Of a stretch of DNA of 64,000 nucleotides, positions 14,148 through 55,637 are shown one piece after another. A model generated the notes under the pieces. That model saw nothing but the letters and a program-made list of their open reading frames with translations. It was not told where the DNA came from and did not search any database. The stretch spans positions 13,541,229 through 13,605,228 of the forward strand of contig OX387188.1 of the NCBI GenBank assembly GCA_947561395.2, given 5' to 3'. Every line of letters starts with the position of its first letter. The first letter of the stretch is position 1. This stretch comes from Buxus sempervirens (taxonomy: Eukaryota; Streptophyta; Magnoliopsida; Buxales; Buxaceae). The translations under genes and the position numbers were made by a program.

Positions 14148-17100
14148 TGTAACGCCCCGAATCCGGGTCTCTTTTTTTCTTCATTTTGACTCGGATCAAG
14201 GCATTAACTTGTGGTACATTACAATCAGTTCAAATATAAGGAAATAAAGAACTAAGATTTATCAGAGTACTAGGAAGCTTAAATCATTTATTAGAAGCTA
14301 AATCATCCGATTACATTCACTAATTAAATGAAAGGCAACTACAAATTTAACTAATTCTTAATATCCTACACAATCATCTATTACGATTCCAATAAAATAA
14401 ATACAGCTATATAAAATCATCCTACTCTTTTCATATGAAATTTCTAGACTTCAACCCACTATCTGTCTAACCCGTGGCGTCCTCTCCAAGATGACCTGAA
14501 AAGTAGAATATGAAGTGGGGGTGAGATACAACTATCTCAGTAGGTAACACATGCATGAGGAAAACAGTATATATATAGAAAATAACAGTGGTTTCATGCA
14601 CGGTAAAATAGGCGATTAATTACAGTCAATAAGATAAACGAATAATCACGATACAAACAAACATTTAATCAGTGCCGGAATTAAAAGAAGTTAATCATGC
14701 GTGTTTCATTTCAATTTAAAGGACAATGTATTATATTTCACGTTCCCATGGTTTCTGGTTTATTTTCTGTAGTGTCTTCTTAAGAGCAGTTCCACATTTT
14801 ATTCATGATTCCATAATATTCCATTTTAACAGTTCACATAAATCATAGCAGTTCTGTTCAATTACGACATTTCAATATTTCCTTTTAAATAATAATCCAT
14901 CAACCTGAGAATTAATCATTATATCAGTAATAAAAACCAACCTTCAGGTAGTAGCCTATCTCTACCATAGAACGCAAACACGTAGTATCCACACAAGCTC
15001 CGCAGGAGAATGCACATCTCTAAGACTACAGGTACCCCCTGCAGGAGACAGCATAACTCTACCGCAGGATGTGAACACCTAGCATCTACCTCTACCGTAA
15101 GAGATAGCTTCCTCACCTTCCAGTGGTAACTCACACACCCATCCTCCATGTGGGATGCAATCACGCATAATCACATCTCCCCCACATGAGGTATCTCTCC
15201 TGTAGGATGCAATCCATCGGAAATACATCTGCCCCACAGGAGGTAATGAATCTCTCCCGCAGGAGGTAATGTCTCCGCCACCAAGCGGGTTGGGTCTCCG
15301 CCACCAAGCGGGTTAGGGTCTCTGCCACCAAGCGGGTATCTCTGCCACCAAGCAGGTTAGGGTCTCCGCCACCAAGCGGGTTAGGGTCTCCGCCACCAAG
15401 CGGGTATCTCTGCCACCAAGCAGGTTAGGGTCTCCGCCACCAAGCGGGTATCTCTGCCACCAAGCAGGTTAGGGTCTCCGCCACCAAGCGGGTATCTCTG
15501 CCACCAAGCAGGTTATTTATAAAACTGGCCACCAAGCCATCACAGATAATTCTCAATTCCATTATTATTTATAACATATTAGGTTCATGCTCAAAGTCCA
15601 GTTCTAAATAGTTTCCCCAGTTTATTAATCATAATATTTTGTTTAGTATATATAAAAATATCTTCAGCATGATAACCCAATTTAGTGTCAGGTAGATATT
15701 TACTTAAGTAAGAAATTTGATGCATAACACGTACGCTAGAGTGCGGTTCTAATCATGTATTAATTACATTAATACTCAATTGTTTAATAGTATAGGTGAG
15801 TGGTTTTTAAGGTAATAGAATTTAATTAAGATTCGGTTATAATATAAAAATTATTCAAGTTTGGATACAGTGGGAGGAATTCACGTACATAGCATGATTT
15901 TAATTTGGTTTGTGTTTTTCAAGTTATTAAGGTTTAGTCATGGTCAAAAGAGACAAATAGAAGTATTTAGGTTTTAGTTTAAGTCAAATAAAGTAAAAAG
16001 GGAGTTATTACAAATGAGTGTTATTGACTAAATTTTAATAAAAATTATTAACAATTAGGCTTGTAATGATTACAAGCCCTTTTTGTGTATTTGGACGATT
16101 TGGTCGCCTAGGCGAAGTTAGGCGACCTAGGTGAGCGGTTCTTTTATTTTAATTGTGATTTTCTTCTAACACGAGCGCCGATCGTCCGTCACTCGGCGGT
16201 CTCGGGCGCTCCAAATTTTTAACTAACGCCGAACATCGCCTAGGAGCGCTGAGTGCAGGCGAGCTCGGCGCTCTAACCAAAACGACGAACGGAGTTTCGA
16301 AAACTAATTTTTTGTATTCAAATTGCTTCTAACATTCATATAAACATACAATCAATCTATCTACATACTTATATAACCATAAATCATGCAATCGAATCGA
16401 ATAAACTGTAGGAAATCAAAACGAACGAGAAAACGGTGCTACCTACCTCCGTCCGCTCAAATCCTTTCTTCTTCCAACCAGAGACTTCCTCTCCTCTTCG
16501 CAGGCAAGAGACGTTCCAGGAATGGTGAGGAACCAGAGATATGCCCTCTTCCTCCTTCTTCTCGGTCTCCCTTTCTCTCTCTCGTTCTTCTTCTCTTCCG
16601 CCGCAGCCTCCAACTTCAACGCATAAGGCATCCTACGAATACAACTAAAACTATTCAACCCTATTTTATTCTTCCTTGATCCCACGTATCTCCCTAGGAT
16701 CAGGTTCCATACTCATCCACCCATTAGACTTAATAAGGACCGTTAATCCATACTTAACTCGATATCTCGCGATCCAACGGTCAGATCTGCGTCAAACTCC
16801 AGATCTCCCCTATCAGTGTGATCATCTATAATTATAATTAATATCCTTCAATAAAATTCTCATTTCCTCGACTTCAGGCTTCAAATCAAACATAATTACC
16901 AATATGCCATTATTCCAATTACTAAGCTTTAAATATCATTGTTAATAGACAATCTAAACCCCAATTTAAATCTATTAGTATTTCTCAAGTCTAATAACAA
17001 ATTTTAATTAATGTATTTAATTATTTTACCGTTAATTAATGTGAATTGACCGAAATACCCTTCTCTCAATATTTTCACATCTACCCATTCAATTTTTTCC

Positions 17101-17281
17101 GAAATTTCCAAGTTTATTCTCTTTGTCATTATTAGTCCGTTATAAATCCCGAATGAATTATAAGTACCGCAAATCATTCCTTTATATTAAATCCCCAATT
17201 TATTTTGACAAATTCATTGACACTCCAAATATTCGTATTAAATTTTTATTTATTTATTTAGTGAAAATTCGGGGTTTTACA
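14148..17281 (-). mobile_element. T6: complete T-class solo LTR inside gag
   Basis: 3134 bp with TSD atagt (14143-14147 and 17282-17286). Minus-strand ends TGTAAAACCCCGAATTTT (from 17281) and CCGGATTCGGGGCGTTACA (to 14148). Intron-like segment 14496-16446 (1951 bp) with donor GGAG|GTAGGTAGCACC and acceptor CTTTTCAG|GTCATC. The donor arm (16436-16446) pairs with 14540-14550 (GTGTTACCTAC in sense), with one wobble. This copy has GTAGGT instead of GTAAGT, and the partner changes with it. GC-rich palindromic block at 16095-16275. No primer site, polypurine tract or coding domain, hence solo LTR. Confidence 0.9.
15271..15515. repeat. CCACCAAGCGGGT minisatellite in the T6 intron
   Basis: About eleven units of alternating length (about 21-24 bp) on the theme TCTCCGCCACCAAGCGGGTTA, arranged partly as higher-order pairs (GCGGG and GCAGG versions alternate). 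It lies in the 3' half of the intron. Confidence 0.95.
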
Positions 17282-17926: not shown

Positions 17927-17934
17927 TATAAAAG
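17927..17934 (+). promoter_or_regulatory. TATA box of T7
   Basis: TATAAAAG in GTTTATAAAAGGGTCG. Its position and strand orient the whole T class, because T12 (41881-41888, minus) and T13 (45093-45100, minus) have one 300-455 bp from the same end. Confidence 0.7.
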
Positions 17935-19768
17935 GGTCGAAATGCATTTGAGCAAGGTTAGTCGAATTGTTTCTGGAGAATTCAGAAGAACTGAAGCTGA
18001 ACCAAATTATTTGGAGGAAGAAGAAAGTCTAATTGAAGGAGAAATTACATCTGGTCGGTGGAGGTAATTGGGAGTAATCTGAGAATCTAATGGTTGAGTT
18101 GCTGCAGAAGATCGTTCAGTTCATTGGTTGATCTCATGGAGATCTGGTAAGTGTATTTTAGATCTGATTGGTGTGAGAAAATAGAGAGAAATTAGGATCT
18201 GGATTTGATTTGAGCAGATCTGATCTTGTTGATGAAACAGGGAGTGATCGGCAATCAAATTGGGAAATGCTAAATTGTTGAGATCGGAGGTGGATTCAGA
18301 GAACTCAAGCTGTGAAAGGAAGCTAGATTCCGGAGGGTTTGTCTGCATTGGAAATGGTAGGAGCTAAGCGGCGGACACTTTGCTGTTGGAGAATTCAGCA
18401 TCTGAAATTCGGTGGAGATTCAATCATTTTAGGTGCTGATCTCAGAGAGATTAGAGACCAATTAGTCTCTGGTTTGATCTTCCGGAGGTGTTATGATCAG
18501 AAGATTGTGAGATCTTAAGAGTTGTTCATCAGCACAAGTAATTAGCACCTTCTAAAACTCATGCTTTTGTGTGGATTTTGGTCTCTCTGAAAAAAATTAG
18601 AATTGTTTTGAACGAATCTGAAATTCTGTTCACAATTATTGATTTCTTTGAGCAGATTTTATATTCAAGTTTAGTTAATCTATTCACCTATATTTATTAG
18701 AATTGTAGGGAAGTTAAAAATAGCACCAAGTATTCATAGAATTGTTGGGAGGCAACATACTAAGGTTGGGTTATAATTTTTCTGCAGCAAGTGATTTGGG
18801 TCTCCTTTGAACTTGTTGTTGGTGACAAAACCTATGTTATTACCCCACCTAAATTCTTAAAGTTTAAATTGAGATTTCAGATCTATAGTAATTTATGGGA
18901 ATTAGAATAACAACAAATAATGAGTATGAATTGATAATGGGATCTATTAGTAGAGGTTAGACAAATCTGATTTTTCTAGCTATAAGAAATTTTTCTAATT
19001 AGAGAATTTTTTTTAGAAGAATTGAGATGAATAAGTAGTTGCTGGTCAAATTTATCTAGGAATCACTTTAGAAGAATGAAATAAAGACAATCAACGGAAT
19101 TGGGGAAATAACCAAAGCCGAAATTAGAATTATAAAATGAGATGATTCTTCTAGGAGAATATACTGTTTAAGATTCAAAATAAGCAACACCAAACTGATT
19201 TTATTGACAAGGTTGAATTCTGAATTTTCTAAGGACTATAATTAGATGCTAGTCTAAGGAATTTAAGTAGGTACTAGTGATGTTACATGAAGATTATTAA
19301 TTGATAATTTGAGTAAGCTAAATGTGTAGTTAGATCAATGGAAATATTAGGCATTATTCCTAGAGCTTAACTAAAGATTAATTATATTCTGAAATTGTTT
19401 AAAACTTAGAAACTCTACAGCAACTTCAAGTAAGTGAACCATGAAACTTTAGAAATAAATACTAAGGAAAGAACTTATAAAATTTTATCTGAACTAATAG
19501 AAATAATTGAACAAAAACTTTACTGATTTAAAGTACTTTTGTGATCCATATCTTATTACTGAACTTCAGATCGTGATTTTGTTGAACTGAATTTTATCGA
19601 AGGTTAGTTTGCTGAACAGAATTTATAAAAGAGGTTTCTTTGAGTTGTTTGTTTACACCGATTGTTTTGAATATTGTTCTTTGGTTTTGAATATACATTT
19701 GGAGTTCCATGGAGTATTGTTCTGATCCTAAGGGACCCATGATAAAGATGTTTTGTTTTTAGTATATA

Positions 19769-19856: not shown

Positions 19857-21614
19857 ATTGTTGAGTTTATTGTGTTGAAAGTCTAGCTTGTCCTGGATCC
19901 AGAGTCTAAGCTTAGTAATGTGATATGTTGACTTTATTGCTGTAATTGCATGGCCATGAGTGTTGCCATGACTAGAGTAGAGCAACCTGTGATCCTTGGT
20001 AGGCCGGGTTGTCAATGCTGAAACCCGGAATATGCCGGCATTGGATGACAAAGTTCCTTAGTAGGCAGTCATTTCAGAGTACCGAGTCTATATTGACCGG
20101 ACTATGTTCCAAGAGGCTTGGATGTCACTCAGGCATGTAAATTACCCAATATAAGTAAACTACATGATATTGGCCTCGATGTTTTGGTTTTATCGGTATT
20201 TGTAACTCCAATTGGTTCTGAGTGGCCCATGATAAACATTCAGCTTTCCGAAGATTATTATTTCATCAAAGTGTTGTTACCTGGTTATAAATGACTTTAA
20301 GGTTATATTTGTGATTTGATACTGACATTAATTGCTTGGCATACATGTTGAATTAAACTAGCTATATCATTTTTATCTGTTATATTATTGTGGGATTAGT
20401 CGGATTAATCATGTTATCATCATCGTTACCGGTGTATTATTCAATCCATGTTTCATAACTTTGAAAAAGGTATTTGTGCATGCATGTGCTACTTACTGGG
20501 ATATTCATATCTCATTCCGTATTGTTTTGTTTTGTTTTCAGCTGCTCTTGGAGAGGACGATACCTGCGGGTAGTTGCTCGGTTATATGAGTGTAGAGTTG
20601 TATTCTATTTTTACTATTTTAGTTTGGGATTATTTTAGTGCACTCTATTATATAGTTATTGTTGTATTCATGTTTTTTTCTTCACTCTGATATTGCGATC
20701 CTGTGTTATATATTAACCTCCAGAGATGAGTTATGGTTTCTCTACGTAACTCGGATCCGGGGCGTTACATGCATGAAGCAAAGAGAAGAGCTGGAAAGAA
20801 CGGTTTTGGAAGTACAAGTTAGAGAAGCTTACTTGATCTCTAAAGTCGATGAAGCTAAACTCAAGTGCAAGGAAGAATCTACTGTGATAGCTGACTTGAA
20901 AGGTAAATTTCCTTCTTGGAAAATGAAATCAGACTATCTAAATTGTCTTTCTCTAAATTTCCTGCAGGATCAAAGGCACTAGATGAAATGTTGGAGAGTC
21001 AAAGAAGAGATAAAGATCATAGTAGACTAGGACTTGTTGCTGAAAATTCACTGAACAAAGCATTCAAAGGAAAGGAAAAGATAATAGAGAAGGCACCTTC
21101 AAAAGAAACAAACTCTTCACAAGTCCAACCAAGCTCTAAGGCTCCATTGGGTAAAAGATTCTCACCTTTTTCTCGGATTAAAGTTCAATTTTCTGAAAAT
21201 AGGCATGACACTAGAAGGAAATCTGAGTTCAATTCCATCACATTCATACCTATATGCCATCATTGTGGAAGAAAAGGACACATTAGACCTAGATGCCATA
21301 TACTACATGGATTACACAAAGAGTATGTTGATAAGAAAAAATTTCAGACTTATCTAAAGTCAAATTTCTCCTTATATAACAGATTTCAAGCTCTCATGAA
21401 AGAAACTGAACTCTTGGGACATGAAATTCAGAATTTAAATAAGACCAAAAACCCTTCATTTTTTTCATCTAAATCTCAAGAGAGTGCACCTAAACCTAAG
21501 AATTCTGCAGGTAACACATATCTTAAAGGTTTGGTACCTAATGTAAGAGAAGTTTGGGTAAGAAAATCTAAACCTATGTGTCATGTTGGTGATGATATTT
21601 TCACAAAACTTTAG

Positions 21615-22936: not shown

Positions 22937-25509
22937 TGTAACGGCCCGGATCCAGGTTTATTTAAACACATAAACGCAAATCTGGTTCGTTAGGGAAAAT
23001 GGCCCAAAACAACAATTCCAGACTTAAACAATTTCATTTATTATATCAGAGTGCGAAAATAAAAACATCTTTCAGAAAACATGGAATTAAACCACCAAAA
23101 TAATCCATTAGTATTTCATCTATAAAGTCTGGAAAGGTTCAACTAAATAAAATAAATAACATCCACCAAGGGTGTGGAGTAAAGATACTAATAATCCTTC
23201 AAATGTCATCAAAATCCTCAAATAAAAATACTAAAGTTAATTCCTAAGAAAATAAATCTAAATATCTCTCCATGTCCTCCTAGACCTACACAGGAATGAA
23301 ATAGTCGTCTTCCTGGTAATCACAGTAATCCCCCGGAGTCTCTACCCCAGTAACGTCCTCTCCGGGAATATCTGAAAACAAAACCGATAAAACAATAATA
23401 TGATAAACAACATCTCAGTAAGCAGTCATGCAAATAGTCGACCACAATAAAATATGCAACGCTTAATCAGAATAATCACAATAAGATTCAAGACAACAAT
23501 AAAATACAATTTATCCACCTCATGGGACTCATGAAATAGTATACCAGAAAAAGAGAGTAGACATGTGCCAATATGCTACCTATCCGAATTACAATGGACC
23601 AGCCGCCCTGCAGTATGACTATTCAACACCAACGGAAGAACCCAACCATGAGTTAGCATGTACTGTCCAACCAATCCAGGAGTGGGTAACGTAGCGACCG
23701 ACCAATCCTGGAGCAGTACCATCCTCGAGATGATAGAATGCCTCAAACATAGAATTCAAACCTTTCTAATACACATTTCACTTACTAGCTATTCTATGAA
23801 TCCATATAACTGCTAAGCCCACTCAACGATGAGAAAACCAACTAGGGTAATGGACATACTTCTCAATAACACCCACCAAATACAGAACCTTATCTATATA
23901 ACCAAATCCGCCCATGCGGGAAACAATAAAACAGGCACCAGCCTTGTCACACCAATGATCCAAAACCAAAACAGAATGTACCAAGTCATATGTCCAAAAC
24001 TCCAGGTTTCAATGGGCCAATATGTCTTGAATGTGTATCGACTCCATCGACGCACAAAATACCTTCATATCACCCAAATACAGCTGTATGAACTCACAAA
24101 ACCAACCTTGGTTTAAAGTAAAATCTTTTGGAACAATGGAATCAAGTAAAAGTGCCTCTTTAGAAAACATCTAACCAAAATCTTTATAAAATTGAATTTT
24201 AAACATCCGCCAGTGCAAACGATTCCCAAATACCCCAATCTTGATGGTACATAGGTTAAAATTGGATAAAAACACTTCCGTAATGAAAACTAGGTTGAAA
24301 AGCCAACTTCCAAAAATCTGACAGACTGGTCGCTCGAGCGGCCAAGGGCTCTCGATTGGCCTTACACAATAAGTTGTTTCAGGGGAGATCACTCGAGCGA
24401 CTGTTCTAGCAACAGTTCAATCTGGGTAAAATTGCTCTTGGATTTTGAAATAAATACATAGGGCGCTCGAGCGACTGTTCTAGCGACAGTTCAATCTGGG
24501 TAAAATTGCTCTCGGGTTTTGAATATATACATAAGGCGCTAGAGCGACTGCTTAGGCGGCCCGATACGTGAAAAATCTGCAACTTTGCGAAATTCAACAA
24601 AAATTCCACAACTCAATATTCAATGCATCAAAACCATTCTAAAACACTTTATAAACATGCTAGAACAATTCCCAACAATTAAAACATCATAAATAACAAA
24701 AACAACGCATCCAATCACCAATTAACCACGTATATTGTCTAAACACGAATTTGTATTTTATGCAAGCGTCAAGGGACTACTTACCTAGTTTTAAGAACTT
24801 AAATCTTCTCTAAAAGCAACGAAATATCACCAAAATTATGCTCCAACAATCTCACAAGTTTTGATCTCGTCTTGGTTAAGAAAAATCATGTTTTTAGAAT
24901 CTAGCAACACATCTATCTCTCCAAAAACAGAACTTTCTCTTGACTTGCTCTTACCTGAGTTTTACTGCACGAAAATCTCCTTCTTCCTTCTCTAAAACTG
25001 CTCCAGCAAGTGCTTGAATATTAGGGTTTGATCACAAAGAAGCAACGAGATGAATAGAGGGAAAGAGATGGAACGTGCGGCTGTTGGTTTCTATGTTGGA
25101 CGTGAATTGCCTATTTTCATGCACATTAGGTTATTTTATTAGTTTTAGAGGTTTTTACCATATTGCCCTTCTTCATTAAATCAAACCATTCAACCCAACT
25201 AATCCTTGAACCAACTAAAATCAAGCCATTAAACCAACTAAACCTTTGGGTCAACCCACTCTCCTTGGGTTCGACCAACTCCCTTTATTTATTCTTATAC
25301 TTTAGTTAACTTTTCACTATAATAATTTGAATAATTATAATTAAACTTCTGCCTGGATTAAATAAAAAATTCTCACCTTATATTAGCTTTCCATGTTATC
25401 CTCCGGTGCATCTTGAACTCCTCCGGGTTGAACCAAAATTTCATCTCCTACATATTTATTAACCAATTAGTCTATTGATTTATTTATTACTAAAATCTGG
25501 GATTTTACA
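22937..25509 (-). mobile_element. T8: complete T-class solo LTR
   Basis: 2573 bp, TSD ctgaa (22932-22936 and 25510-25514). Minus-strand start TGTAAAATCCCAGATTTT, end CCGGGCCGTTACA. Intron-like segment 23372-24784 (1413 bp): donor CTAG|GTAAGTAGTCCC, acceptor GGTTTTGTTTTCAG|ATATTCC. The donor arm ends AGTC rather than the common AGCAC, and the partner at 23418-23427 reads GACTGCTTAC in sense, so the change is matched. GC-rich block with CTCGAGCG palindromes at 24320-24560. After the acceptor a frame ending EDDYFIPV-stop is open, as in T15. Confidence 0.9.
24393..24541. repeat. Two-copy 75-bp tandem duplication in T8
   Basis: Two copies of about 72-76 bp running from CGAGCGACTGTTCTAGC to a TACATA tail (24393-24467 and 24469-24541). 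They contain the GCGCTCGAGCG palindrome and so lie in the GC-rich block of the intron. Confidence 0.85.
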
Positions 25510-26753: not shown

Positions 26754-29700
26754 ATGCTTGTAACGCTCCAAACCCGGGTCAGTGCAAACCGGCACCCAAC
26801 CCAAACCCGGTTCGCTACTGTAACAACCCAAGTCCGGTTCAACAACCAAACTCGAGGTGTTACCACGAAGCTGGGGTCAAATACAAACCAAGATTCACAA
26901 TAATTTTAAACTTTACTAATTCATTACATCAGAGTTATGGTGGCCAATAAAACAATTCTTATTTCAATAATATCAATTCAGTTTACAATAAAGTTTATCA
27001 AATCAACATGTGCCATTAATACCAATTACAATTCTACCCATCAAATTAAAACCCCATCTTCGCGATCTCTCCAAGCAACCTGAAAAATAGGGGAAAACGG
27101 AGTGAGATTTACATCTCAGCAAGTAGCAGGTGCATGCAATTAGAAACAGTCCAATGTAAGCAAATAGTCATGAGGTATGCGATTAATCAACAATAAGACG
27201 AGAAATTCAAGTTATTCATGGCAATTACAAATAAAGTGATAAAACAGATGATCATGAATAATATCAGTAACTTGATGTTAACGGGGTAAAACCGACAAAA
27301 GCGATAAAACAAGTGCCATTGCAGGACTCACAAAGATGATAAGTATTTGAGATGACACTCAACTAACTGCTATACCACAGTGCGGCTTAGGGGTAGTGCT
27401 ACTAATGATACTCAAGCCCCATGCAGCGCAGCTTAGACAAGAGCCGTAGTTACCGACTTATTGTGCACGAACTCAATAGAGTTGGCATGTATCACCAACA
27501 TGCAGCACCAGAATCAATACATGGAGGTGACCGCTTATTCACATGTACAGGGAATCACCAGTGGTTCACCGAGGTGTCCTCCAGACATAGGACCTTCCCA
27601 AAGCAAACTAACCTGCAAGGGAAGCGCGCTCACATATAGGAGTAACTCAACCCAAACTAAATACCACTTAGCTAACCAGCCAAAACTATGGATCCATATA
27701 CAGCTAAGCCCACTGACACAAAACACGATAAAACCACATACGGGAGGACACGCTACTATAGGAGGCATACACACTTTTACCTGTAAAGGATTACACATCT
27801 CTACACAAAGGATTACCCATCTCTGCCGTAAAAGCTAGTATCAACTCAACCACAGAAGCCGTACCACTCAACCGTAAAAGAAAAGCAAATAACATTATAC
27901 CACATACCAATCCATACCAAAATATTCAATTCCAAGAGAAAACCATGATTCAATCCTTAAAAATCCAAATAAAACCTTTTTCGGAATAACATATGCAATT
28001 TCCCAATTATATTCAAAATAAAACTCATGTATCATAATTTCGATAAAAATCAGACTTTATGCAATTCCAGAAACCAATATTCATATTTAAAGTATGAACT
28101 AGAAGTAATTCAAGTCTTGCTTAGAATTTTCCCTATTAATTCCCTTTATTGTAATCCCAGTTCTCATATTGTTGCCTAAGATAGTATTTATTCCAATTTT
28201 CTGTATTTACAATTTCCAGCATACTCTACAGATCTAAAATCAAGTTTAGAAGATGCTTTTAATCCATAAATACAAGCTGGTATCATTCCCATTGTTTACC
28301 TTCAAATTTGTCCCTTTCATATTCTATCCTACCCTTAGGACCTCCAATTTCTTGGTTATTTCAAAAATATAATTTTATAAATTTTTATACTTTAATTAGG
28401 TCTTTATAAACATGCTAGTATGCTTCACTTATTAGTAAAATTATTGGATATTTATTCGTGTTACAAAAATCACCAAAATCTACAAATTCTGCATAGAGCT
28501 CCTACCTCTACAGGGCTAGGCGGTCATGGGCGATCCTAGGTGCTTGTGCAAATTTTAACAGAAATTTCCAGATTTACAAAGTTCGGATTTTTAGGCTTTT
28601 GCCATATGTTTCTTTGGTCTAAATTAATCTACTAACATTCTAAAACATACCTAAAGCCTTCTAGATTAATTCTTGTTAATTAAATACCATCCTATAATTA
28701 ATTTCATGATCAAACCAAGTTTTCTTCTTTATTTCAACAAATCCTTCAAAAATACCAATCACTAACATATAAACAATTTAATTCCATGTAAATACTGTTC
28801 TGACTAATCCATTCAATCCATATGAAATCACAGAAAACGAAATCATGCAGTTCCTCACGTTTTCCAAGGGTTACTACTTGCCTTATACGCTAAAATCCTT
28901 CTTCCATTGAAGCTCTTAATTCTGGACCTGACTTTTGCTCCCAAACACACCAACCTAGAGTTATCCAATTCAAATCTCCACCGTTCATATTGTAGATCCA
29001 TCAGTCATAAACAAAACCTCCAAATGTGAAGGCGATCCACCATAATGAATTTCCCCGATCGCGATTTGATGATGGCTGGTGAAACATCTCCATTAACAAC
29101 CTTCTTCCTTTCTCTCCCTCTTTTCTCTCAATAATAAACTCACGAAAATTCTCTCTTGTCTAATCTTAATCTCCTATTTATTCTAAGCCTTAGAAGTCCT
29201 AAACCAACCTTAATACACTACGTTAATTTGGGCTAACCCAACCATGGTCTAATTAAAGTCTAACCCATTCTAATTAATTCCTACTTTTTCTCCACCTTTT
29301 ATTTTTCTACCTAAACATTAATAATTTAATCTCTTATCATCTAAACTCCTATTTATAACCTATTTTCGTGCCTAATAATTACTTAAACACTAAATATCAC
29401 CTAAAACCCAAATTAATTACTTTTTCTCCCAATTAAGACTTGAAATCTCCTAATTACCCTTTTCCACATTTGGGCTTTTATTAATTCCTTTTAATTTATA
29501 ACTTGTCTAAATAAATTATTTTCTTCTATTTTATAATCCTAGTTATTATTTAATGATCTATTTATTAATTACCCTTTTCTGAAAATTACCAAAATACCCT
29601 TTTAGGCTAATTTCCTTAAAATTCTTTCTTTATTTACAACTTCTTACCTATTTGAATTACTTATCCTCTAAATCTTTACTTTTTATTTCAACTAGGACTT

Positions 29701-29997: not shown

Positions 29998-31534
29998 TGT
30001 TGTGAAAATTTCTTTTCCCTTATGACAATTGGATGAAAAAGTGTCATTAGTTCTAATGAAATTTTTTTAAGTATGGTGTAGCAAGTAAGTGAAGAAAAGA
30101 TTCATGAATTGATTAAGAAAAATCTAAACATTGTGTTGTATTAAGGATGCTACAAACAGGTTTAGTGGTAACCTGTTGTAGATACACCTGTAACAAAATC
30201 TGGGTTTGAAAACGACCTCTGTTACGATTATGTTGGGTGGTCAAAACTTTTCTGTTAGTGGGTTATTGGATAGTTACAACTACTATTAATACTGAGATAA
30301 AAGGAGATCTGGAGAATGGAAGAGGGACTTTTTCGAACAAGAGAGTCTTGGGAGAAAGAGAGGAGCTTGATAGATCGAAGAGGTGATGCAAAGCTGATTG
30401 ATTGCTTCAAGAACTAATTGAAGCTTTGGAGATGCCCCATTCGTATACCCCATTCGCACAAACCCAAAATGCCCAACCCTCCTTCTCTTCTTCATTTTCC
30501 TCTTCCACCTTCCATTCATCATCTTCTCCTTCTTGATTTATTCCTTTAATCTTTCCCATCACATTGCCATTCACCTTGAATCCATTTGAAAAAAAAACCC
30601 AAGCTATAGTGATTTTCGTTTGGAGCTTTTCTTGGAGATTTGTGGAGCACCAACTAAAGAGCAACGAGGAGTGCTGTTCGTAGCTTGCAAAAGGAAGCAA
30701 GAAGACTTGCTTAAGTGATTGCAAGAGATAAGTAACACCACCCCTCCCACATTTCAAATTTTCGGCCATTCTCGTGCATGAGATGCGAATGCTAAGGTTT
30801 GACATATGAAATGTTTATTTGTGTAAATAGAGAGGATTTCTTTTAAGGGTTTTGTAGAGGATAGATAAATACACATGCTAGGCACAATTTATAGCCCAGA
30901 AACACCCAAAACGAGTGAGGTTTGAGAAAAACCACAAATCCCCAAAATCTGGATTTCGCGAGTTGCTGAGAAATCCCAGCCGCTCGAGCGCAGCATCGGG
31001 CGACAGTTTTAGGAAGAGACTTAAGGCATGGCCGCTTGAGTGACTGCTCTAGTGACCTGCCTAAACAGAAGAACCCGAGAGCTAATTCTTGGCTGCTCGA
31101 AGCAGGCTCGAGCGACCTATCGAGCGCCCTAACCAAAATTTTCCATTTTTGGATTTTTAGCCCAGATTGAACTACCATTTGTTTTCATTCAAATCCAACC
31201 CATGTGTAAGTGAGAGTTAGGTGTTTAGGAGGTGTTCCAACTGGAGTTGTCACCAAATTCCAAATAGTAAAGATTTTGGGTAAGTTTTGCTAGAATAGGT
31301 CTTATAGAGAGTTTATGTTCCAGATTTTTATAGAAGTGGGATAAATTGATTCCGTCCCTCCAAACACCTTCCAAATAGCCCTTCGAAGTAGAAATCAAGA
31401 ACCAAAACCAAGTTGTACAAGTATCGAAAGAGTTGGGGCATAGGTTGCCCAAATGGGTCATGAAGTGTAGGAATTTCTGGAAAGCCTATCCTTCATCATA
31501 GACCTTCAGTATAAGTACACAATACATGATAAGA

Positions 31535-36345: not shown

Positions 36346-36577
36346 ATGGTAGCCGTTACAATCACTAGAAGTATGATTAGGCCTGTAATTGATTTGCCAT
36401 TTTCATCAAATATTTTGAATTTGAAGGAGAGAATTCAAGAGTATACAGGGGTTTGAGTAGCTAGACAGACCATATGGAAGGGTAGAGAGGAATTAATGGA
36501 TGATATTACCTTTGAGCAATTTCCAATACCTAATGCACCAATCTCTGTCCATCTAGTTGTTAAACCATTAGAAGGCA

Positions 36578-39619: not shown

Positions 39620-42343
39620 TGTAATGCCCCGAATCCGAGTTAAGTAGCGAAACCATAACTCATCTCCGGAGGTTAATATATAACATAGGATCGCAATATC
39701 AAAGTGAAGGAAAGACATGAATACCACAATAATGATATAATCAGAGTGTGCTACAATCCCAAACTAAAATAATAAATAGAAATACAATTCTAAACTCACA
39801 TAACCAAGCAATTACCCGCGATATCGTCCTCTCCAGGAGTAGCTGAAAACAAAACAAAACAATACGGGATGAGATACGAATATCCCAGTGAGCAGCACAT
39901 GCATGCACAAAACCATTTAGTTCAGTTCTAAAACATGCCACGGTAAAAGCATACACCGTGTTGATAACACATATAATTCGAGTAATCCGATAACATTCCA
40001 ACAATCCAATCGATATAAACACAAAAATCCATCATATAGCCCCAATTAATAACATCGGTATCAAATCTTGAATATAGTCATGAGATCACGAATAACCAGG
40101 TAACCGAACATCGATGAAATCATAATTTCAAATAACTCAGGGTTTCGAAATACTAGAGTGTTTATCATGGGCCACTCCGCGCCACTAGAGTATTTTATCA
40201 TGGACTACTCCACACCAATAGAGTATTTTTATCATGGGCTACTCTACACCAATAAACCAGCAAATAAAACATATCATGTCAAATAAAGTCAAATACCCAC
40301 ATTGGTTAATGTCATGTAGTTGCTTAGATTGGGTAATCGACATGCCAAGGCGACATCCACACCTCCATGTACACAGTTCCGGCCTACTCAGGGTTTCGGA
40401 ACTCTGAAATGACGGCCTACTCAGGGTTTCGTCTTCCAATGCCGGTCTACTCCTCAGGTTTCAGCATGGACAACCAAGCCTACTCAGGGTTTCTGGCTGC
40501 TTTACACCGATCATGGCAACACTCAAGGCCATGCAATTACACCAATGAAGCAATAACATTACATTACTAAGCTTAGACTCTGGATCTAGGACAAACTAAA
40601 CCAAAACAGAATACTCAATGCATAAACTCACCTCTAGTAACAAAATACACCAAACTCTGGTATCACCATTAAATAAACAAACCAAAATTATCACGGGTCA
40701 CTCAGAACCAGAACAGTAGCTCATGGAACTTCACATGATATTCTAAAACAAAGAACACTAGTCAAAACCTTTTGTATAATCATTTACTCATTGCAAAGCT
40801 ATTGTCTATAAATTCTGCCCAACACATTACAATCCGATAAAACTCCGGTTAAACAGTATCACAAATTGGAAATTAACAGTAAAACATGAGCTAAACAAAA
40901 CCAAGCACACCTGGTACCAAACCAGCAACTAAACTACCAACAAGCCCTTAAAATCTTACTTTAAATCCTCATAAATCCTCCCAATAATTAACGGAAAAAT
41001 CTCATTAGGTTTTGACCACTTTATAATACTTCCAACATCTTAATCCAGCTTCTAGACAAGTGTTTGAAGCATTAGAGTGGAGAATATCAGCTCAAAATGG
41101 TCAGCCGCACTTCACCTGGGAATGTGGTGGGTGCGCTGACCTTCAGACAGTAGGCGCTAGGTCAGCGCATCCAATTTTTACTCATTCCCTGAGTTGCTGC
41201 CGAGTGAAGTCAATGGGCGGCACCCAGTGGATACCCCCTGTATTTCCCGATACCAGATTTCGCTCACTGTTAGCTCAATCTGGCCACGACTGACCTAAAA
41301 TCAAGCCTCCACAATAGCTTATCTATACTTCTACCACCTCTAACAGACATTTAAAACCAAATCAAAATAATTCTAACAAAGTACATGCTCCGACTCGCAA
41401 AGTACATGCTCCGACTCGCAAATCTCTTCAAAAACTCAATACAGTCTCTAATAAATCACACAATAGATAGTCTCGACTAATCTCAAGTATTCGGCTTCAA
41501 CACACAGAGTAAAACTAATGCTACTCACCTGATTTGACGAGCAATTCTTCTAGCTTCCAAATTGATAATCTCAATAGCCGATTGCTACTGTTCCACATGA
41601 ACAACTAGATCTAAGCTTTATCTTCCTTTAGTAACCCAATTTCATCCTAATTCCAACGAAAATCACTTACCTGATCTTCTCTTGATATCTGCAACCAGGA
41701 TTTGATTACACTTCACAAATTTACAGCTGCTGAGATCTCCAATCAGCCAAGGATTCTCCTCCGGTGATCTCCAAACATTTTCATTCAAAATAGCCTTCTG
41801 AAACTCAATCGAACTCTCCACTGCTCAGCTCTCCAAATTGGCTCCGATCAACAAAAGAACCAAAGTTGGAATGAGCAACCTATTTATAGGCTCCATTGTT
41901 GCCCTAAACTACTTCATCATCCACCGCTTCGCCAGACCACCAAGCTTCCTACCTACTCAGCCTCTTAGCCTTTTCATTTACACTTTATCACTCCACCAAC
42001 TCCTACAGTAGCACCTCATTAACTTATAATAAATTTTAATACATATTACCATTAATTATTTAAATTATTTTCATAATCACCACTTATCTTAATTTACGAC
42101 CTTCTTCACCTAATTTAGTAAATTCTCCAAATACCCCTTTCTCGCTATACCATCAAACCACTAAAAATCCAACCTATGAAACTTAAATATCTAATTTATC
42201 AATTTAGAAATTCCTCATGTCTAATTTTGAAATTTTACTCTAAATAATTTCCTTTTTCCATTTTCTGAAAATTTCAACTAATTAAATAAATCAATGAACA
42301 AAAATCAAAATTTTAATTTTATTAAAAATTCAGGATTTTACAT
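39620..42343 (-). mobile_element. T12: complete T-class solo LTR inside the LINE
   Basis: 2724 bp. Flanks caggt (39615-39619) and taggc (42344-42348) differ at both ends but are both one C-to-T step from caggc, so this is a decayed TSD. Minus-strand start TGTAAAATCCTGAATTTTT, end CTCGGATTCGGGGCATTACA. Minus TATAAATA at 41881-41888. Intron-like segment 39843-41528 (1686 bp): donor TCAG|GTGAGTAGCAT, acceptor GTTTTGTTTTCAG|CTACTC. Donor arm 41518-41528 pairs with 39898-39908 (GTGCTGCTCAC in sense) with two wobbles. GC-rich block 41098-41290; an 18-bp phrase is doubled at 41388-41420. Confidence 0.85.
40370..40500. repeat. GGCCTACTCAGGGTTTCG repeat in the T12 intron
   Basis: Four units matching T11 in inverse orientation. 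Near it, a shorter repeat about TATCATGGGCTACTC occurs three times at 40160-40250. Confidence 0.85.
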
Positions 42344-42575: not shown

Positions 42576-43144
42576 TGTAACGCCCCAGACCCGAGTTACG
42601 TAATAAAACTGTAACTCGTTTCCGAAGGGTTAATTTTTCACACAGGATCGTTATATCAGAATGAAGGAAAACACGAACTAAACATATACCATAAAACCAG
42701 AATCAACTAAAACCCAACTCAATATAGAATAGCATATCTCTAATCTGAAACTCACATGATCCAAGTATCTACCCTTCTGTATCGTCCTCTCATGGAGCAG
42801 CTGAAACCAAAACAAAGCAAAACGGAATGAGATACGAATATCCCAACAAGTAGCACATGCATGCACCAATACATTTTTCATAGTTATAAAACATGGATCG
42901 GATATAAAGCATGTAACAATGGCAATAACATGATTAATCCAAATAATCCCACAATAATCCAACAATCAAATATAATATAACTCATGTAATCCAGCATATA
43001 AGTCAAATCCGTAGCATCGATGACAAATCTAACGATGTAATAAAGTGTCGATGAAACCAATTATTCAAAACAACTCAAAAGATATAACTCAAATCAAAAC
43101 AAGTGTCAACGTCGATAAAGCCATATCATGATCAAGTCTACACC

Positions 43145-44360: not shown

Positions 44361-45400
44361 TTTCACTAAAATTGGTCGCTGACTCAACCGCCTTAGCGAT
44401 GAGGTGAGTGACCCCTGATAGAACTCAGATTGGACGCAAATCACTCTCTGTAAACTCGAAATCCTCACCTCTGTCTCAATTCCGATCGATCAAAACACAT
44501 CAATTAACCTATCTAACCCCTCGAAAACCTTAATTCATGATCATTGATTTAATTTAACAACAATTCAATCGGTATCGGCAAACATCCAATTCGACGCACG
44601 ATATAGAATTCTTCTTCAAACACGAGCAAAATTCTTATTCAAACAAAGATAAAACTGTAAATCACGGTATGGAAAGTGCTACTTACTTGCTAGAGCTCAA
44701 TTACAAATCCAGATACTAGAATTCCTCAGATTCGACACCTCCTGATTCCAATTTCTTAGTCGATGGCTTCCTCCACAGATCTAAGATCTGAATTCCAATC
44801 AATCTTATCATATCTAAAGGAATCCAATTTATTCCTTTTATCTTCTGTTTATATGATAAAGATTGTTAGTTTCAGATCACTCTTACCAAATTCCTCCTAT
44901 GGTGGCCCAATCCTCTTCCTTGAGAGCTGATCTCCCCAATTTTTCCAACGAACTACTCTTCTCAATTGTTCTCCACAGCAATACTCTCTCACACGCCCAA
45001 TAGTAGCCTTTCCCCCTTTCTCTTCAGATCTCCTTTTGATTTCCAGAAGTCTCTCGACTAACCAACCGAAACAACAACCAACTAACAACCTCCTTTTATA
45101 CTCCCATGTTTTGCCGCCCAACTCTTTTAAACACCCGGTGATTTGCTGATTGCCACTCTACCATGCTAACCTACACTAACACTATAATTAATTCATTTAA
45201 TTTAATTTAATATCTCTTGAATACTCATACTATAAAATATATAACAATCACTTACCATAAATAATAGTTTTTCTCTTCAATCACTCTCTAAAATTCCCAA
45301 AATACCCTTGCTCTTCATTTTCCTAAAATATCCACTAATAATAATCATTTTATTACTAAAACCAATTCTAAATTATTAATAAAAAATTTGGGGTTTCACA

Positions 45401-46280: not shown

Positions 46281-48035
46281 TATAAAATCCAAGATTTTAT
46301 TAATAAAATAATTGTAATATTTAAATAGACTGATCAAGTTATAAATACTGCAGGAGATGAGGCATTGGTTCAACCCAGAGAAGTCCAAGTTGACCCGGAG
46401 GAAATTGGGGAACCTATCTAAGGTGAGATATGAATTTAGGATTTAGTAAGTTAAATATAATCAATTTTGTTATTGCTGAGATTTGTTTTAAGTAAGTGAA
46501 AAAATATATATAAATAATAAGAACAAATAAAGGAGGTGGTCAAAGCCCAGAGAGTGGGGGTTGACCCAGATTGGTTTGGTTTGAGGTTTAATGGGTGTGA
46601 TTGTGTTTGGTTTAATGAAGAGGGCGTTTTAGTAAAAGGAAGGGAAATAATATAATAATCTAAAAAATAAACAAGTGACTGTTCATGTTCAAACAAGTGA
46701 ACAGCCGGCAACTTCAAGTCCTTCTTCTTCTATTCTTATCTTTTCTTCCTTGTGATCAAACCCTAACATTCAAGCAACCATTGGAGCAGATTTTTAGAGG
46801 AGGAAGAGGAATTTCGTTTGGAAAATTTGCATGTAAGAAACAAACTCGAAAAATCTGTTTTGGGACTCTTAATGTGAATGAGTGTTGATAAAAGTATGAT
46901 TGTTTAATCCAGAAGAGATAAAGGCTTGATGTGATTGATTGGATCATCTTTGGGGTGATATTTTAGAGCTATTAGAGGAGTTGTTTGTCCCAAACGAGGT
47001 AAGTAGTCCCTTTAAAGATTTCATAAACGAATTTTGTATTTATTCGATGATCGTGTTTATTCGCATGTTTGATGATTCGTTTGCATATTATATTGTGTTT
47101 TAATTGTTCTAACATGTTTATGAAGTATTCTTGAATAATTTAGTATGGTTTTGATGCTATAGCTTTCTAGTTTTAGATTTTAGAATGATTTATGCAAGTT
47201 TTCGGAAGTTGCTGAAATTTGTATTTCGCGACAGGCCGCTCGAACTGCTACTCAAGCGCCCATATGGGTCTCGAGAGCAGTTCGCAGGTGCTCGATACCG
47301 CTCGAGCGATATCGAGGGCGCCCCACCTGTTCTTTTTAATTTCCAGAAAACCTAAAAGTGATCAAAACCCAGAAGGCGAACGCCCGAAGCATCGCTCAAG
47401 TGACTTCTCGAGCGACCAACCCTGAATTCACCTGGATTTCATGTTGCCTATTCGAGCACCCGTTGCCGCTCGAGCGCCCTTTGACAGATTTTTAAATTTC
47501 TCCAACTAGCCTAGTTTTCCACTATGAAATTGTTTTTATTCAATTTCAACCAATGTACCATCAAGTTTAGAGTGTTTAGAGATAGTTTGCACTAGCGGAT
47601 CATTAAAATATTTTTTATAAAGATTTTGAGTACGTTTTGCTAAAAAGACTTTTTAACTTAGACCCATTGTTCCAAACAATTCCCTTTTGAACAAAACTTG
47701 ATTTTAAGAGTTCTTACACCTGTATTTGGGTTATTTGAGTGTATTTTGTGCATCGAAGGATTCGATACACATCCGGGACATAGTTGCCCTTGTGTGGGTT
47801 TTTGGGTCACAGTTGTGACAAGGCAGTTGCCTGGTTCGTTTATTCTGCAGTTGCGAGTTTGGTTATTGACATAGTTGTATCTCTGCGTATGCGGGTGTTA
47901 TTGGAGAATATGTCCATCACTTGGTTTGTTTTCCACTGTTTGAGTGGGCTTAGCAATTGCATGGATCCATAGATTAGCTAACAAGTGAAATGTTTTCTAG
48001 AGGATGATAGCTTTCCTGGATAGGTCGATCGCTAC

Positions 48036-50418: not shown

Positions 50419-51899
50419 ACTACGTTCACCCACTCCTGGATAGGTTGGACCGTACATGCTAACTCATTCCAATTGTCGGTTGGGTTCTTCCGTTGGTGTC
50501 GAATAGCCAGTCTGCAGTTGCGTCTGGTCCACCCATAATTCGGTTAGGTAGCATATTGGCACATGTCTACTGTCTTTCTCTTGTTTTCTATTTCATGAGT
50601 CCCATGAGGTTTAATGGTTTGTGGTTGTTTTACTTTTATTAAAGTATCGCTATTCTGTATTTTTAATTGTGATTAGCCTGATTATACGTTGCATATTTTA
50701 TTGTTACAAACTATTTGTATGACTACTTACTGGGATGTTGTTTCTTATATATTTGTTTTATCGGTTTTGTTTTCAGATATTGTAGCGCCCCAGATCCGGG
50801 TCTGTCCTATCACAGCACCAACCCGTACCCGAGACCTACTTATGGGCCCAATAGAACCTGATAAACACAATTTCCTGGGCAATTACAATGTAATTATCAG
50901 AGTGCATAACTAAAGAAGCATGGAATAAAAACTTTCCATCCAACAAAAGATTTCCTGTATTACAATCTCCAAAACATGATATACATGTGAACAAAATACA
51001 ACTAAGGCAACTAACCATTCACAATGATCTCCCCAAAATATACGGACATGTACAAAAGATTCTCCCAAAAGTATAGGTCCAAAAATGATATTTACATCCC
51101 ATTTACAATCCCCAAGACAAAATACATCATCATAAAAAGAACCCTACTATGGGTGGTAGAAATCCTCTGGCCTGAACTAAAGCTCACCCTCAATGTTTGC
51201 CCCGGTACGCGGCTCACCAAGCGGATCTGAAAACAAATCCGGTAAAACAAAACATACATGAGACATAAAGTCCTAGTGAGCAGCAAACATGCATTGATAG
51301 AAACAATTTATGTAATTTTATAACATCGTGATAATATTCACAATATAAAATACCAAATGTAAACCAAAACATCTCAATACAATATAAAGTGTAATTTTAA
51401 GTCAAATATCTCAATCGGGTAGCACATGAAATCAAATCGACAAATACATTCAAATACTACAAACATGTCTTGTTAGGACTCGTGGTTAGCATGTCTGTAA
51501 ATTAGATTAATGACCAGTATCCATTGCCACCTACGAGACTTACAGAGAGAAGCCTAGCTAGGGACATCTCAGCAAGCAGAGTACCCACGTATGGGCTGGC
51601 AAGTAGTCAACCTAACCAAGGATCCAGACTAAGTGGGATTCCCCACCCACTATTCGATGAATCGCAAGGACTCCCGCCGGTTCCCCGCGACATGGGGTTG
51701 CCGCAGCCCTCTGTTCCCCGAGAAGGCCTCACTGATTCCCCACAGTGGAATGCTATATGGATAAGGCAATTAAAGCTAACAAGCCAATACCAACACACTA
51801 ATTAGACTCACTGTAGATCCACACTAAGAACAATGTCCAATTAGACGACTCATAAATCAAAACAAACCATTCAATTCCAAGAGTAAAACCAGTGCTTAA

Positions 51900-53465: not shown

Positions 53466-54905
53466 GGGTGTACCTAAGGCATACCAGGGGGTATCTTACT
53501 GTTATTTGAAAGGGTACCTTGGTATTAAATGAGGGTACTTTGGTGGTTCAAGGGTTTTCTTTAACTATTTCAAGGGGTATACTATAGGGATGCTTATGGG
53601 GTACTTTAGTGTTATTCGAGGGGGATACCTTGGTATTAAGTGGGAGTACCTTAGTGTTAAGTGGGGGTACCTTGGTGTTTCAAGGGATTTTGTCTTAGCC
53701 ACTTCAAGAGGTATGTTTTAGGGATGCTTGGGAGGTGTACCTCAGTTAACACAAGGGATACTTTAGTTATACGAGGGGTACTTCAGTTATTTGAGGAGGT
53801 ACCTTGATGTTTCAAGGGATTTACCTTATTCATTCTAAGGGGTAAACTTTAGATGAGCTTAAGGGGTGTACCTTAGTTATATTGAGGAGGGGTACTTAGC
53901 TATAGGAGGGGTGTACCTTAGTTATATGAAGAGGTACATCTAAGTAATACGAGGAGGATGTACCCTAGGTAATATAAGTGATGTACCTTAGGTATATTGG
54001 AGGTACTTTAGTGATATAAAGGGGGTACCTTAGCTGTATAAGGGGTTATACCTTAGGCAAAACAATGGGGGGTTACCTTACTTATATAGGGGTTACTTTA
54101 GTTAGACAAAGGGGGTACTTTGGCTATATAGGGGGTGTACCCTAGGTAAAACAGTGGGGGTACCTTACTTATATGAGAGGAGTACCTCTAGGAAATATAA
54201 GGGGTGTACCCTAGGTAATGTAAGAGATGTACCTTAGTAATACAAGAGGGTACTTTAGCTATACAAAGGGGGTACCCTAGCTATATAAGGGAATGTACCT
54301 TAGGTAAACAAGGGGGTACTTTAAGTAAAACAGTGGGGTACCTTAGTCAAAATAAAAGGATACCTTAGGCAATACAAGTAAGGTGCCTTAGGTATAATTA
54401 GGGGGTACTTTTGGTATTCGAATGGGGTACCTTGGGCAAAACAGTGGGGTACCTTAGCCAATATGAGTGAGGTGCCTTAGGTAATATAAGGGGGTACTTT
54501 AGGTATACATGTGGGGTACCTTAGGCAAACACAAGATGATACCTTAGGTAAACACAGGGGTACCTTAGGCAATTAAAGTAGGGTACCTTAAGGATACAAG
54601 TGGGGTACCTTAGGTATAATTGGGGGATACTTTAAGTAACACTTGGGTGGTACCTTGGGTAATACTTGGGCATACCTTGGGTATAGAAGTGGGGTACCTG
54701 GGGTATACTTGAGAGGTTATTTGGGTATTCTTGGGAGATACTTAAGGTACACTTAAGAGGTACCTTGGGCATTCTTAAGAGTTACTTTGAGTATTCTTGA
54801 GAGTATTTTGGGGTATACATGGGTATACACTAGTGTTATCCGGGAGGGTACCTGGGGTAAACTTTGGGGTACCGTGGGTATACTTCGGAATTACTCTAGG
54901 TACAC
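53466..54905. repeat. 1.4-kb GTACCTTAGGTATA minisatellite in T16
   Basis: About sixty degenerate units of 20-28 bp, core GGGGTACCTTAGGTAT, with the GGTACC palindrome in most. Not in the intron but upstream of it. Units differ so much that no long exact copies remain; local blocks (around 54000-54300) suggest several rounds of duplication. Other frames through it are artefacts. Confidence 0.9.
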
Positions 54906-55637
54906 ATAAGTCTAATTTTTCAGAATTTGATTTCCAATTCATTTAAGCTAATTGGAGAGTATCTTAGACAATTGGAATTGAGAAATAACATTAATTAAAC
55001 TTACCTTAATAACCTTCATAAAGTTCAATTGATTTCTCTAAATCCTCAAGAATAATCCACATTTACCTCATCTTCATAACACAAATACTTAATTAGTCTA
55101 ATGATCACACTTTAGATAATTAATCTTAATAATAAAGATATAATCCAGGTCGGGGTTTTACAGATATTCCTAGGGAGGACGTTGCTGGGATAGAAACTTC
55201 GGGGGATTATGCTGAGTACCAGGAAGAAGATTATTTTATTCCTATGTAGGTTTAGGGATTTATTCTATTATCAAAGTGACTTGGTATTTGGAGGGATTGT
55301 CTTAGATTATTTTTATTTAGATGAATTTGGTGGATGATGATACATTTTATTTTAGTTGACCTATCCAGACTTATTTTTGATGGATTTGGTATTGGATGAC
55401 TTATTTTTTTATTCCGCGCTTCTTGGAAGATTTTATCTTTTATTTCCGCACTCTGATTCCATTTATTGGAATTGTTTAAGTCTGGAATTAGTTGTTTTGG
55501 GCCATTATTCTAACGTACTAGGTTCAGGTTATTGTTTTTTTAAATAAACCTGGATCTGGGGCGTTACAAGAAACCTAAACTTACTAGGAATGTCTCTCCT
55601 TCATTCAACTTCCTAATCCAACCCAACCAACCCCACC

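What the first reader, a model, noticed from the sequence alone, without database searches (positions are those of the whole stretch)
14148..55568. Intron-like segment in T-class LTRs whose 5' splice site and branch region are complementary and co-vary
In ten T-class LTRs the first 8-13 bases of the intron-like segment are complementary to a site 39-55 bases before a CAG acceptor; that site contains CTTAC or CTCAC, a branch-point-like word. Pairs (donor arm / partner in sense): T6 GTAGGTAGCAC / GTGTTACCTAC; T7 GTAATTAGCAC / GTGCTACTTAC; T8 GTAAGTAGTC / GACTGCTTAC; T9 GCAAGTAG / CTACTTGC; T10 ATAAGTAACAC / GTGTTGCTTAC; T11 GTGAGTAGCAC / GTGCTACTCAC; T12 GTGAGTAGCAT / GTGCTGCTCAC; T13 GTAAGTAGCAC / GTGCTACTTGT; T15 GTAAGTAGTC / GACTACTTAC; T16 GTAAGTAGCAAAC / GTTTGCTGCTCAC. 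At least five positions change together, and most other differences are G-U wobbles. This is what selection for a stem of about 11 bp closing a 1.4-2.0 kb loop would leave. Inference: the stem brings the two splice sites together, or hides them, and so sets how much LTR transcript is spliced. The alternative is that the arms are inverted ends of an old insertion kept similar by conversion.
Basis: partly seen in the sequence, partly recalled or inferred. Interest (0 to 1): 0.92.

Follow-up and report, generated by a model that had tools for sequence, protein, structure and literature searches.

The report
LTR splice donor locked by stem
In a very abundant plant-type jumping-gene family, the repeated ends carry a splice donor whose first 11 letters pair with a matching stretch well over 1 kb downstream, and the two stretches change together over evolution, which suggests a built-in RNA lock that keeps the element's RNA from being spliced.

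Summary
The window lies in a 676.5 Mb, plant-like (inferred) genome; the T-class elements are LTRs, apparently mostly solo, of a Ty3/gypsy chromovirus. All ten window pairs exist (96 Watson-Crick, 8 G-U, 2 A-C, 1 other). The partner-plus-hairpin motif has 8,157 exact matches genome-wide, 0 in the reversed control. Of 60 copies from contig 1, 46 have a near-perfect upstream complement of their own partner, against 2 of 60 for the reversed partner. In 33 copies whose donor was mapped by homology with the arm masked, 362 of 363 pairs are Watson-Crick or G-U. On a tree: 8 double compensatory changes, and 27 single changes to G-U against 2 to A-C. That points to sense-strand RNA pairing, not inverted-repeat conversion. 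The stem covers intron bases +1 to +11, so it masks the donor. ATG depletion before the donor, an acceptor just before gag, and no intron-less LTR among 1,180 copies suggest that it suppresses splicing within the LTR. No RNA data were available.

The parts
36578..38962 (+). T11: complete solo LTR, TG...CA, flanked by 5-bp target duplication AGGCA (36573-36577 and 38963-38967)
   Evidence: read directly
37084..37094 (+). T11 splice-donor arm GTGAGTAGCAC
   Evidence: 11 of 11 Watson-Crick with 38582-38592
38582..38592 (+). T11 partner arm GTGCTACTCAC
38593..38610 (+). T11 small hairpin TGAGATA-TTCG-TATCTCA; candidate branch A at 38610 (CTCAC), 27 nt before the AG
   Evidence: branch assignment is inference
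38611..38637 (+). T11 pyrimidine-rich tract and acceptor CAG
16436..16446 (-). T6 donor arm GTAGGTAGCAC
   Evidence: 10 WC, 1 G-U
14540..14550 (-). T6 partner arm; acceptor ends at 14496
18538..18548 (+). T7 donor arm GTAATTAGCAC
   Evidence: 10 WC, 1 mismatch (position 5)
20486..20496 (+). T7 partner arm; acceptor ends at 20541
24775..24784 (-). T8 donor arm GTAAGTAGTC
   Evidence: 9 WC, 1 G-U over 10
23418..23427 (-). T8 partner arm; acceptor ends at 23372
28874..28881 (-). T9 donor arm GCAAGTAG (GC donor), minus strand
   Evidence: 8 of 8 WC
27119..27126 (-). T9 partner arm; acceptor ends at 27080
30728..30738 (+). T10 donor arm ATAAGTAACAC (A at +1)
   Evidence: 9 WC, 1 G-U, 1 A-C
32476..32486 (+). 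T10 partner arm; acceptor ends at 32528; CTAAC branch-like word
41518..41528 (-). T12 donor arm GTGAGTAGCAT
   Evidence: 9 WC, 2 G-U
39888..39898 (-). T12 partner arm; acceptor ends at 39843
44676..44686 (-). T13 donor arm GTAAGTAGCAC
   Evidence: 9 WC, 2 G-U
42846..42856 (-). T13 partner arm; acceptor ends at 42801
46999..47008 (+). T15 donor arm GTAAGTAGTC
   Evidence: 10 of 10 WC
50721..50730 (+). T15 partner arm; acceptor ends at 50776; another repeat copy (about 48001-50420) lies inside the loop
53226..53238 (-). T16 donor arm GTAAGTAGCAAAC
   Evidence: 11 WC, 1 G-U, 1 A-C over 13
51276..51288 (-). T16 partner arm; acceptor ends at 51227

Best explanation
Each T-class LTR carries a leader exon ending in a consensus-type splice donor (SD1), an intron-like stretch (arms about 1.3-2.3 kb apart in 48 of 50 loci, 2.6 and 3.0 kb in two), and a consensus-type acceptor (SA1). 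In the sense transcript the first 11 intron bases pair with a site about 39-50 nt upstream of SA1, and a hairpin that probably holds the branch point follows at once. SHOWN: the arms are complementary, covary, keep G-U but hardly A-C, and own arms fold better than swapped ones in silico. INFERRED: the stem masks the donor bases from U1 just as SA1 is transcribed, so SD1-to-SA1 splicing inside one LTR is suppressed. That protects the genomic RNA, which must keep the whole LTR, while the fraction of transcripts whose donor escapes the lock is spliced, most likely to a second acceptor directly before gag ATG, giving a short ATG-poor gag leader without the primer-binding site. The distance between the arms would act as a delay before the lock closes.
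For: Arms and chance. Homology-mapped donors, arm masked: 313 WC, 49 G-U, 1 A-C, 0 other in 33 loci; permuting partners never gave fewer than 7 unpaired in 5,000. Tree tests: 57 pairs, 7 unpaired vs null mean 67.3, minimum 13 of 500; 27 WC-to-GU vs 2 WC-to-AC single changes; 8 double WC-to-WC changes (first run with 1,000 simulations, minimum 14). Leaving out positions 1, 2, 5 and 6, where a fixed G or U donor base makes G-U automatic, the list still gives 17 to 1. A second tree (intron 5' part, 50 loci): 4 unpaired vs mean 38.9, minimum 9; 26 to 1; 4 double changes. Stem probability in the whole intron above 0.5 in 35 of 40 loci; 9 of 12 own vs 2 of 12 with another copy's arm. Exon side of the donor: A at -2 in 40 of 50, G at -1 in 38 of 50, outside the stem. 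ATG: 22 vs 66.6 expected in the last 110 nt before the donor, 1858 vs 1829.8 in the intron, 205 vs 229.5 after SA1 (47 loci). Acceptor before gag ATG intact in 12 of 20 PBS loci, decayed in 2, homologous segment not seen in 6. No intron-less LTR among 1,180 copies with one exon-2 start.
Against: No RNA evidence at all. Transcription start and poly(A) site unknown; a TATA-like word at -130 to -220 was found in only 18 of 50 loci. The stem would also mask SD1 for the gag acceptor, so the kinetic escape step is a guess. 5 of 40 loci give stem probability below 0.5. Position by position the tree test is weak: only positions 2 and 3 reach P below 0.05 (0.028, 0.033). In the 33 homology-mapped loci the tree null also reached the observed value (minimum 1, observed 1; 3 double changes). 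Some changes break pairs: 2 single and 1 double change from WC to another mismatch, 1 double from WC to A-C. Donors of 17 of the 50 loci rest on pairing alone. Ten of 60 loci were left out. No intron-less LTR is also expected if spliced RNA is simply not packaged.
Confidence: 0.55

Rival explanations
1. The stem helps splicing: it brings SD1 next to the branch region of a long intron (zipper-stem logic), so that the leader intron is removed efficiently.
For: The stem links the donor to a site 39-49 nt before SA1 in all ten window copies; donor and acceptor consensus are kept.
Against: The stem includes +1 to +11, where U1 must bind; [quoted passage not shown] Efficient SD1-to-SA1 splicing leaves the PBS in place and should yield intron-less LTRs; none among 1,180 copies of one type. 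Exon 2 is not clearly ATG-depleted.
Confidence: 0.2
2. The arms are the inverted ends of an old insertion (or a TIR-type intron) kept similar by gene conversion; the RNA stem is incidental.
For: Arms are inverted repeats at the two ends of a segment; homology between some copies starts at or near the donor.
Against: 27 single changes to G-U vs 2 to A-C, 17 vs 1 without positions 1, 2, 5, 6 (list), is strand-specific; conversion would restore identity and treat both alike. The segment runs 39-49 nt past the second arm to the AG.
Confidence: 0.05
3. The stem serves something other than splicing in the genomic RNA: packaging, dimerisation, long-range leader folding for reverse transcription, or antisense/dsRNA effects; the overlap with the donor is a by-product.
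For: No copy without the segment was found among 1,180; retroviral leaders combine such signals (recalled; PMC4588261 seen in a listing only).
Against: The arm is registered exactly to the first intron base and the partner lies at a near-constant distance (39-50 nt in 55 of 60 loci) from an acceptor.
Confidence: 0.2

Closest known systems
HIV-1 splice-donor (SD) hairpin (PMC4974535; abstract and section 1.1 read)
   Same: RNA structure masks 11 nt of the major 5' splice site in the leader; suppresses splicing in part; a base-pair covariation supports it
   Different: Local hairpin; here the partner lies well over 1 kb downstream beside an acceptor, inside an LTR of a chromovirus, and several pairs covary
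Zipper and downstream stems in yeast introns (PMC12350175; 12 passages read)
   Same: Long-range stem connecting the 5' splice site region with the branch region; second stem near the 3' splice site
   Different: Zipper stems leave the 5' splice site free; this one covers it. The small hairpin here precedes or holds the likely branch point
Spliced plant LTR retrotransposons: Ogre, EVADE (named in review PMC12786077, passages read), BARE (PMC3735527, abstract read), sunflower elements (PMC7730604, passages read)
   Same: Splicing makes subgenomic RNA for Gag or other proteins beside unspliced RNA; in BARE the RNA pools for translation and replication are distinct
   Different: Here donor and acceptor both lie inside the LTR and are joined by a stem; in the sunflower paper Tekay elements were absent from the expressed set
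Tekay/Del-type chromoviruses (name recalled)
   Same: Long LTRs, PBS TGGTATCAGAG, gag and protease in one frame in L087 and L090 as far as fetched, gag PF03732, integrase zinc-binding and Tf2-1-like SH3 domain
   Different: No LTR intron or splice-donor stem of this kind appeared in the listings

Membership tests
HIV-1-like splice-donor masking structure (works like) | Stem covers the 5' splice site bases that U1 reads | tested here: met
   +1 to +11: 362 of 363 pairs WC or G-U in 33 homology-mapped loci
HIV-1-like splice-donor masking structure (works like) | Local hairpin | tested here: not met
   loop 1.35-1.94 kb in nine window copies, 3.7 kb in T15
HIV-1-like splice-donor masking structure (works like) | Destabilising the stem raises splicing | not testable with these tools
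   needs a reporter
[quoted passage not shown]
   stem starts at +1
Zipper stem | Stem ends at least 20 nt before the branch point | tested here: inconclusive
   T11: 18 nt to the candidate A at 38610; branch point not mapped
Spliceosomal intron | Donor and acceptor consensus including exon bases | tested here: met
   -2 A 40/50, -1 G 38/50; pyrimidine-rich tract and YAG 39-50 nt after the arm in 55 of 60 loci, CAG changed to CAA in the other 5
Spliceosomal intron | Junction reads or intron-less retrocopies | tested here: not met
   no RNA data; no intron-less LTR among 1,180 copies of one exon-2 type
Ty3/gypsy chromovirus (Tekay/Del type) | iMet-type PBS after the LTR, Retrotrans_gag, integrase and SH3 domain | tested here: met
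   388 exact LTR-PBS junctions; PF03732; PF17921 and PF24626 above cut-off, rve PF00665 below its cut-off
Ty3/gypsy chromovirus (Tekay/Del type) | Chromodomain at the end of pol | tested here: inconclusive
   no Pfam chromodomain reported in L066:1085-1639; resemblance by eye only
Ty3/gypsy chromovirus (Tekay/Del type) | Reverse transcriptase phylogeny within Tekay | not tested
   RT region not analysed
TIR insertion / introner-like element | Arms as inverted ends kept by DNA-level identity | tested here: not met
   G-U vs A-C single changes 27:2

The most novel reading that the evidence does not exclude
A retrotransposon LTR that must carry both a donor and an acceptor in each of its two copies has evolved an RNA interlock: the donor is tied to the approach of the acceptor of the same LTR, so that the short-circuit splice is blocked exactly when that acceptor emerges from the polymerase, while a donor caught earlier can reach the gag acceptor. 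Loop length would then work as a transcription timer that sets the ratio of genomic to messenger RNA, and thousands of copies record its coevolution.
Probability: 0.33. Interest if true: 0.87.

Novelty: new variant of a known kind. Interest (0 to 1): 0.74.

Why it matters
A 2025 review says that plant LTR retrotransposons generally lack introns, with Ogre and EVADE as exceptions (PMC12786077, passages), although spliced RNAs are also reported for BARE and sunflower elements. Here a family with more than 8,000 motif copies carries splice sites inside the LTR under a clear RNA-structure constraint. How one transcript serves both as mRNA and as genome is an open question for these elements, and this gives a concrete testable switch. 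The copies also form a large natural data set for covariation between a 5' splice site and a distant partner.

Tried and rejected
Branch point in the partner: rejected as a general rule, 30 of 60 copies have no A there.

Exon 2 as coding tail: in frame +2 many copies encode ..GE..TGVD....Y.EEDYYYxP* (29 copies selected by length and that motif, some near-identical; pN/pS 0.59 over 376 of 406 pairs; differences by codon position 3057/3511/4156 of 9,740); other subfamilies lack it. I thought a pol-end donor AAG|GTAAAT could splice into the 3' LTR; 12 of 20 pol ends have an in-frame TGA just before that donor, so this fails for that group. In gag-protease of four elements no donor matched my consensus. 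The block is purine-rich and may be a splicing enhancer. Unresolved.

Intron-less copies: my first pattern was blind, because it forbade G at -17 and 8 of 9 known exon-1 ends have G there. The corrected pattern gave 4 hits, none an exon-1 junction by eye, against 1,176 with T at -6 (only the first 100 listed). It assumes exon 1 has no T at -6, true of 9 of 9 known ends. The same test for another subfamily and for exon-1-to-gag junctions did not complete.

Donor HMM from the window copies found few donors in other copies. The covariance model R1 could not be used on this genome. A longer folding control timed out and was repeated smaller. Folding the acceptor region alone showed nothing unusual (z 0.12). 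Rfam found nothing.
Full report
What is there. The window is G000:C10:13541229-13605228 of a 676.5 Mb genome in 247 contigs, rich in repeats; that it is a plant is my inference from the element types. T11 is a complete solo LTR, 36578-38962, TGTAAGACCC...GGGGCGTTACA, with target duplication AGGCA. Full-length relatives have the PBS TGGTATCAGAG right after the LTR, a gag with Pfam Retrotrans_gag, integrase zinc-binding and Tf2-1-like SH3 domains and a purine tract before the 3' LTR. This is a Ty3/gypsy element of chromovirus type; 'Tekay/Del' is my recalled label, and no Pfam chromodomain was reported. Only 388 exact LTR-PBS junctions against 8,157 partner-hairpin matches, and an exact PBS in 3 of 60 loci, suggest that most copies are solo LTRs.

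Is the observation right? Yes. One search lists all ten pairs, loops and acceptors. Loops are 1,347-1,937 nt in nine copies and 3,712 in T15, where another repeat copy sits inside. After the arm come a small hairpin-like segment (TGRGATA-loop-TATCTCA in most, altered in T8, T9, T10, T15, T16), a pyrimidine-rich tract and TTTCAG. The pattern ATGCATG-N10-TGRGAT-N6-ATCTCA, which leaves the arm free, has 8,157 matches, and 0 when read backwards.

Is it more than chance? I fetched 60 copies from contig 1: the first 59 of the 100 listed and one later one chosen for its rare arm, L060. The best complement of the 11-base partner in the upstream 2.7 kb scores 18-22 of 22 in 46 of 60, against 2 of 60 for the reversed partner and 46 of 1,200 shuffles. 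With scoring that treats G-U and A-C alike, 56 loci pass, with 527 WC, 75 G-U, 7 A-C and 7 other cells; several of the A-C and other cells come from sites I later judged not to be donors. To avoid choosing donors by their pairing, I mapped donors from other copies with the arm masked: 33 loci, 313 WC, 49 G-U, 1 A-C (four positions set by hand). Pairing each donor with partners of another sequence gives 6.4% A-C.

Is it covariation beyond kinship? A tree was built from the 3' LTR region without the arms (50 loci and 7 window copies; T8, T15 and T16 left out because their arms differ in length, and ten loci left out for lack of a reliable donor). Simulating both arms independently on this tree with the observed number of changes gives 67.3 unpaired cells on average, minimum 13 of 500; observed 7. 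Events: 27 one-sided WC to G-U, 2 WC to A-C, 2 WC to other, 13 G-U to WC, 8 two-sided WC to WC (positions 2, 3, 4, 7 and 8), 2 two-sided breaks. Where the donor base is a fixed G or U, a partner transition gives G-U automatically; without positions 1, 2, 5 and 6 the ratio is 17 to 1 (list). A tree from the other end of the intron gives 4 against 38.9 (minimum 9). For the 33 homology-mapped loci alone: 1 against 25.7, but the null also reached 1. Single positions are weak on their own: only 2 and 3 have P below 0.05. The G-U bias fixes the strand: the sense transcript pairs.

Does it fold? Partition functions of whole introns give the stem a probability above 0.5 in 35 of 40 loci (the first 40 with arms under 2.1 kb apart). 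In 12 loci with a swap control it is 9 of 12 with the own arm and 2 of 12 with an arm from another class. Duplex energy is -15.8 own against -11.0 swapped.

What it probably does. Both splice sites look functional: AG before the donor outside the stem, and a pyrimidine-rich tract with YAG in 55 of 60. ATG is depleted threefold in the last 110 nt before the donor, not in the intron, and little if at all after SA1 (205 against 229.5, sd 15.3). So ribosomes probably scan exon 1 but not exon 2. Just before gag ATG there is another acceptor: TTCTAAC...TTTTGCAG|ATG in one group and TTCTTAACTAAT...GCTTACAG|GTATACATG in another (12 of 20 intact, 2 decayed, 6 without the homologous segment in the 190 nt shown). 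The simplest reading is that gag mRNA is SD1 to the gag acceptor. That RNA lacks the PBS and cannot replicate. SD1 to SA1, by contrast, keeps the PBS and would found intron-less LTRs; among 1,180 copies with one exon-2 start I found none. Hence I favour the stem as a lock against splicing within the LTR. The HIV-1 donor hairpin, which masks 11 nt of the donor and tunes splicing (PMC4974535), is the closest functional parallel. Yeast zipper stems (PMC12350175) differ because they leave the donor free.

What is not shown: any transcript, the start site, the branch point, the spliced fraction, or the order of events during transcription. The listings of eight literature searches (one search returned nothing) showed no title or abstract start on such an LTR intron; the library holds open-licence papers only, and I read passages or abstracts of five papers.

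Noticed in passing
L015, L016, L017 (G000:C1:8881579, 8942606, 9003634): The same LTR with near-identical flanks repeats every 61,027-61,028 bases three times, as in a 61 kb tandem segmental duplication.
   Followed up: no
L049 versus L009, L013 and relatives: Promoter and exon 1 look unrelated while the sequence is shared from the donor onward: exon-1 module swap with the breakpoint at the donor. L023 has the same exon-1 end as L049.
   Followed up: partly
exon 2 of many copies, e.g. window 38638-38715 +: Frame +2 encodes a conserved acidic, tyrosine-rich tail across diverged subfamilies; the upstream coding exon is unknown and a splicing-enhancer reading is possible.
   Followed up: partly
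L011, L024, L027, L054, L060: Acceptor TTTTCAG reads TTTTCAA in 5 of 60 copies, the change expected from decay of a methylated CHG site.
   Followed up: no
L061:295-1050: What looks by eye like a LINE 3' end (RNase H-like frame, poly-A) is inserted in exon 2 of an LTR.
   Followed up: no
window 7850-8153 and 53621-54818: Minisatellite of about 20-23 bp GGGGTACCTTAG-type units near T-class LTRs.
   Followed up: no
leader after the PBS in L015, L061, L065 and many of L067-L086: GTGNGTACGYTAGATAG-like segment soon after the PBS, about 64-72 nt before the gag acceptor in the two main groups; could be a second donor or a packaging signal.
   Followed up: partly
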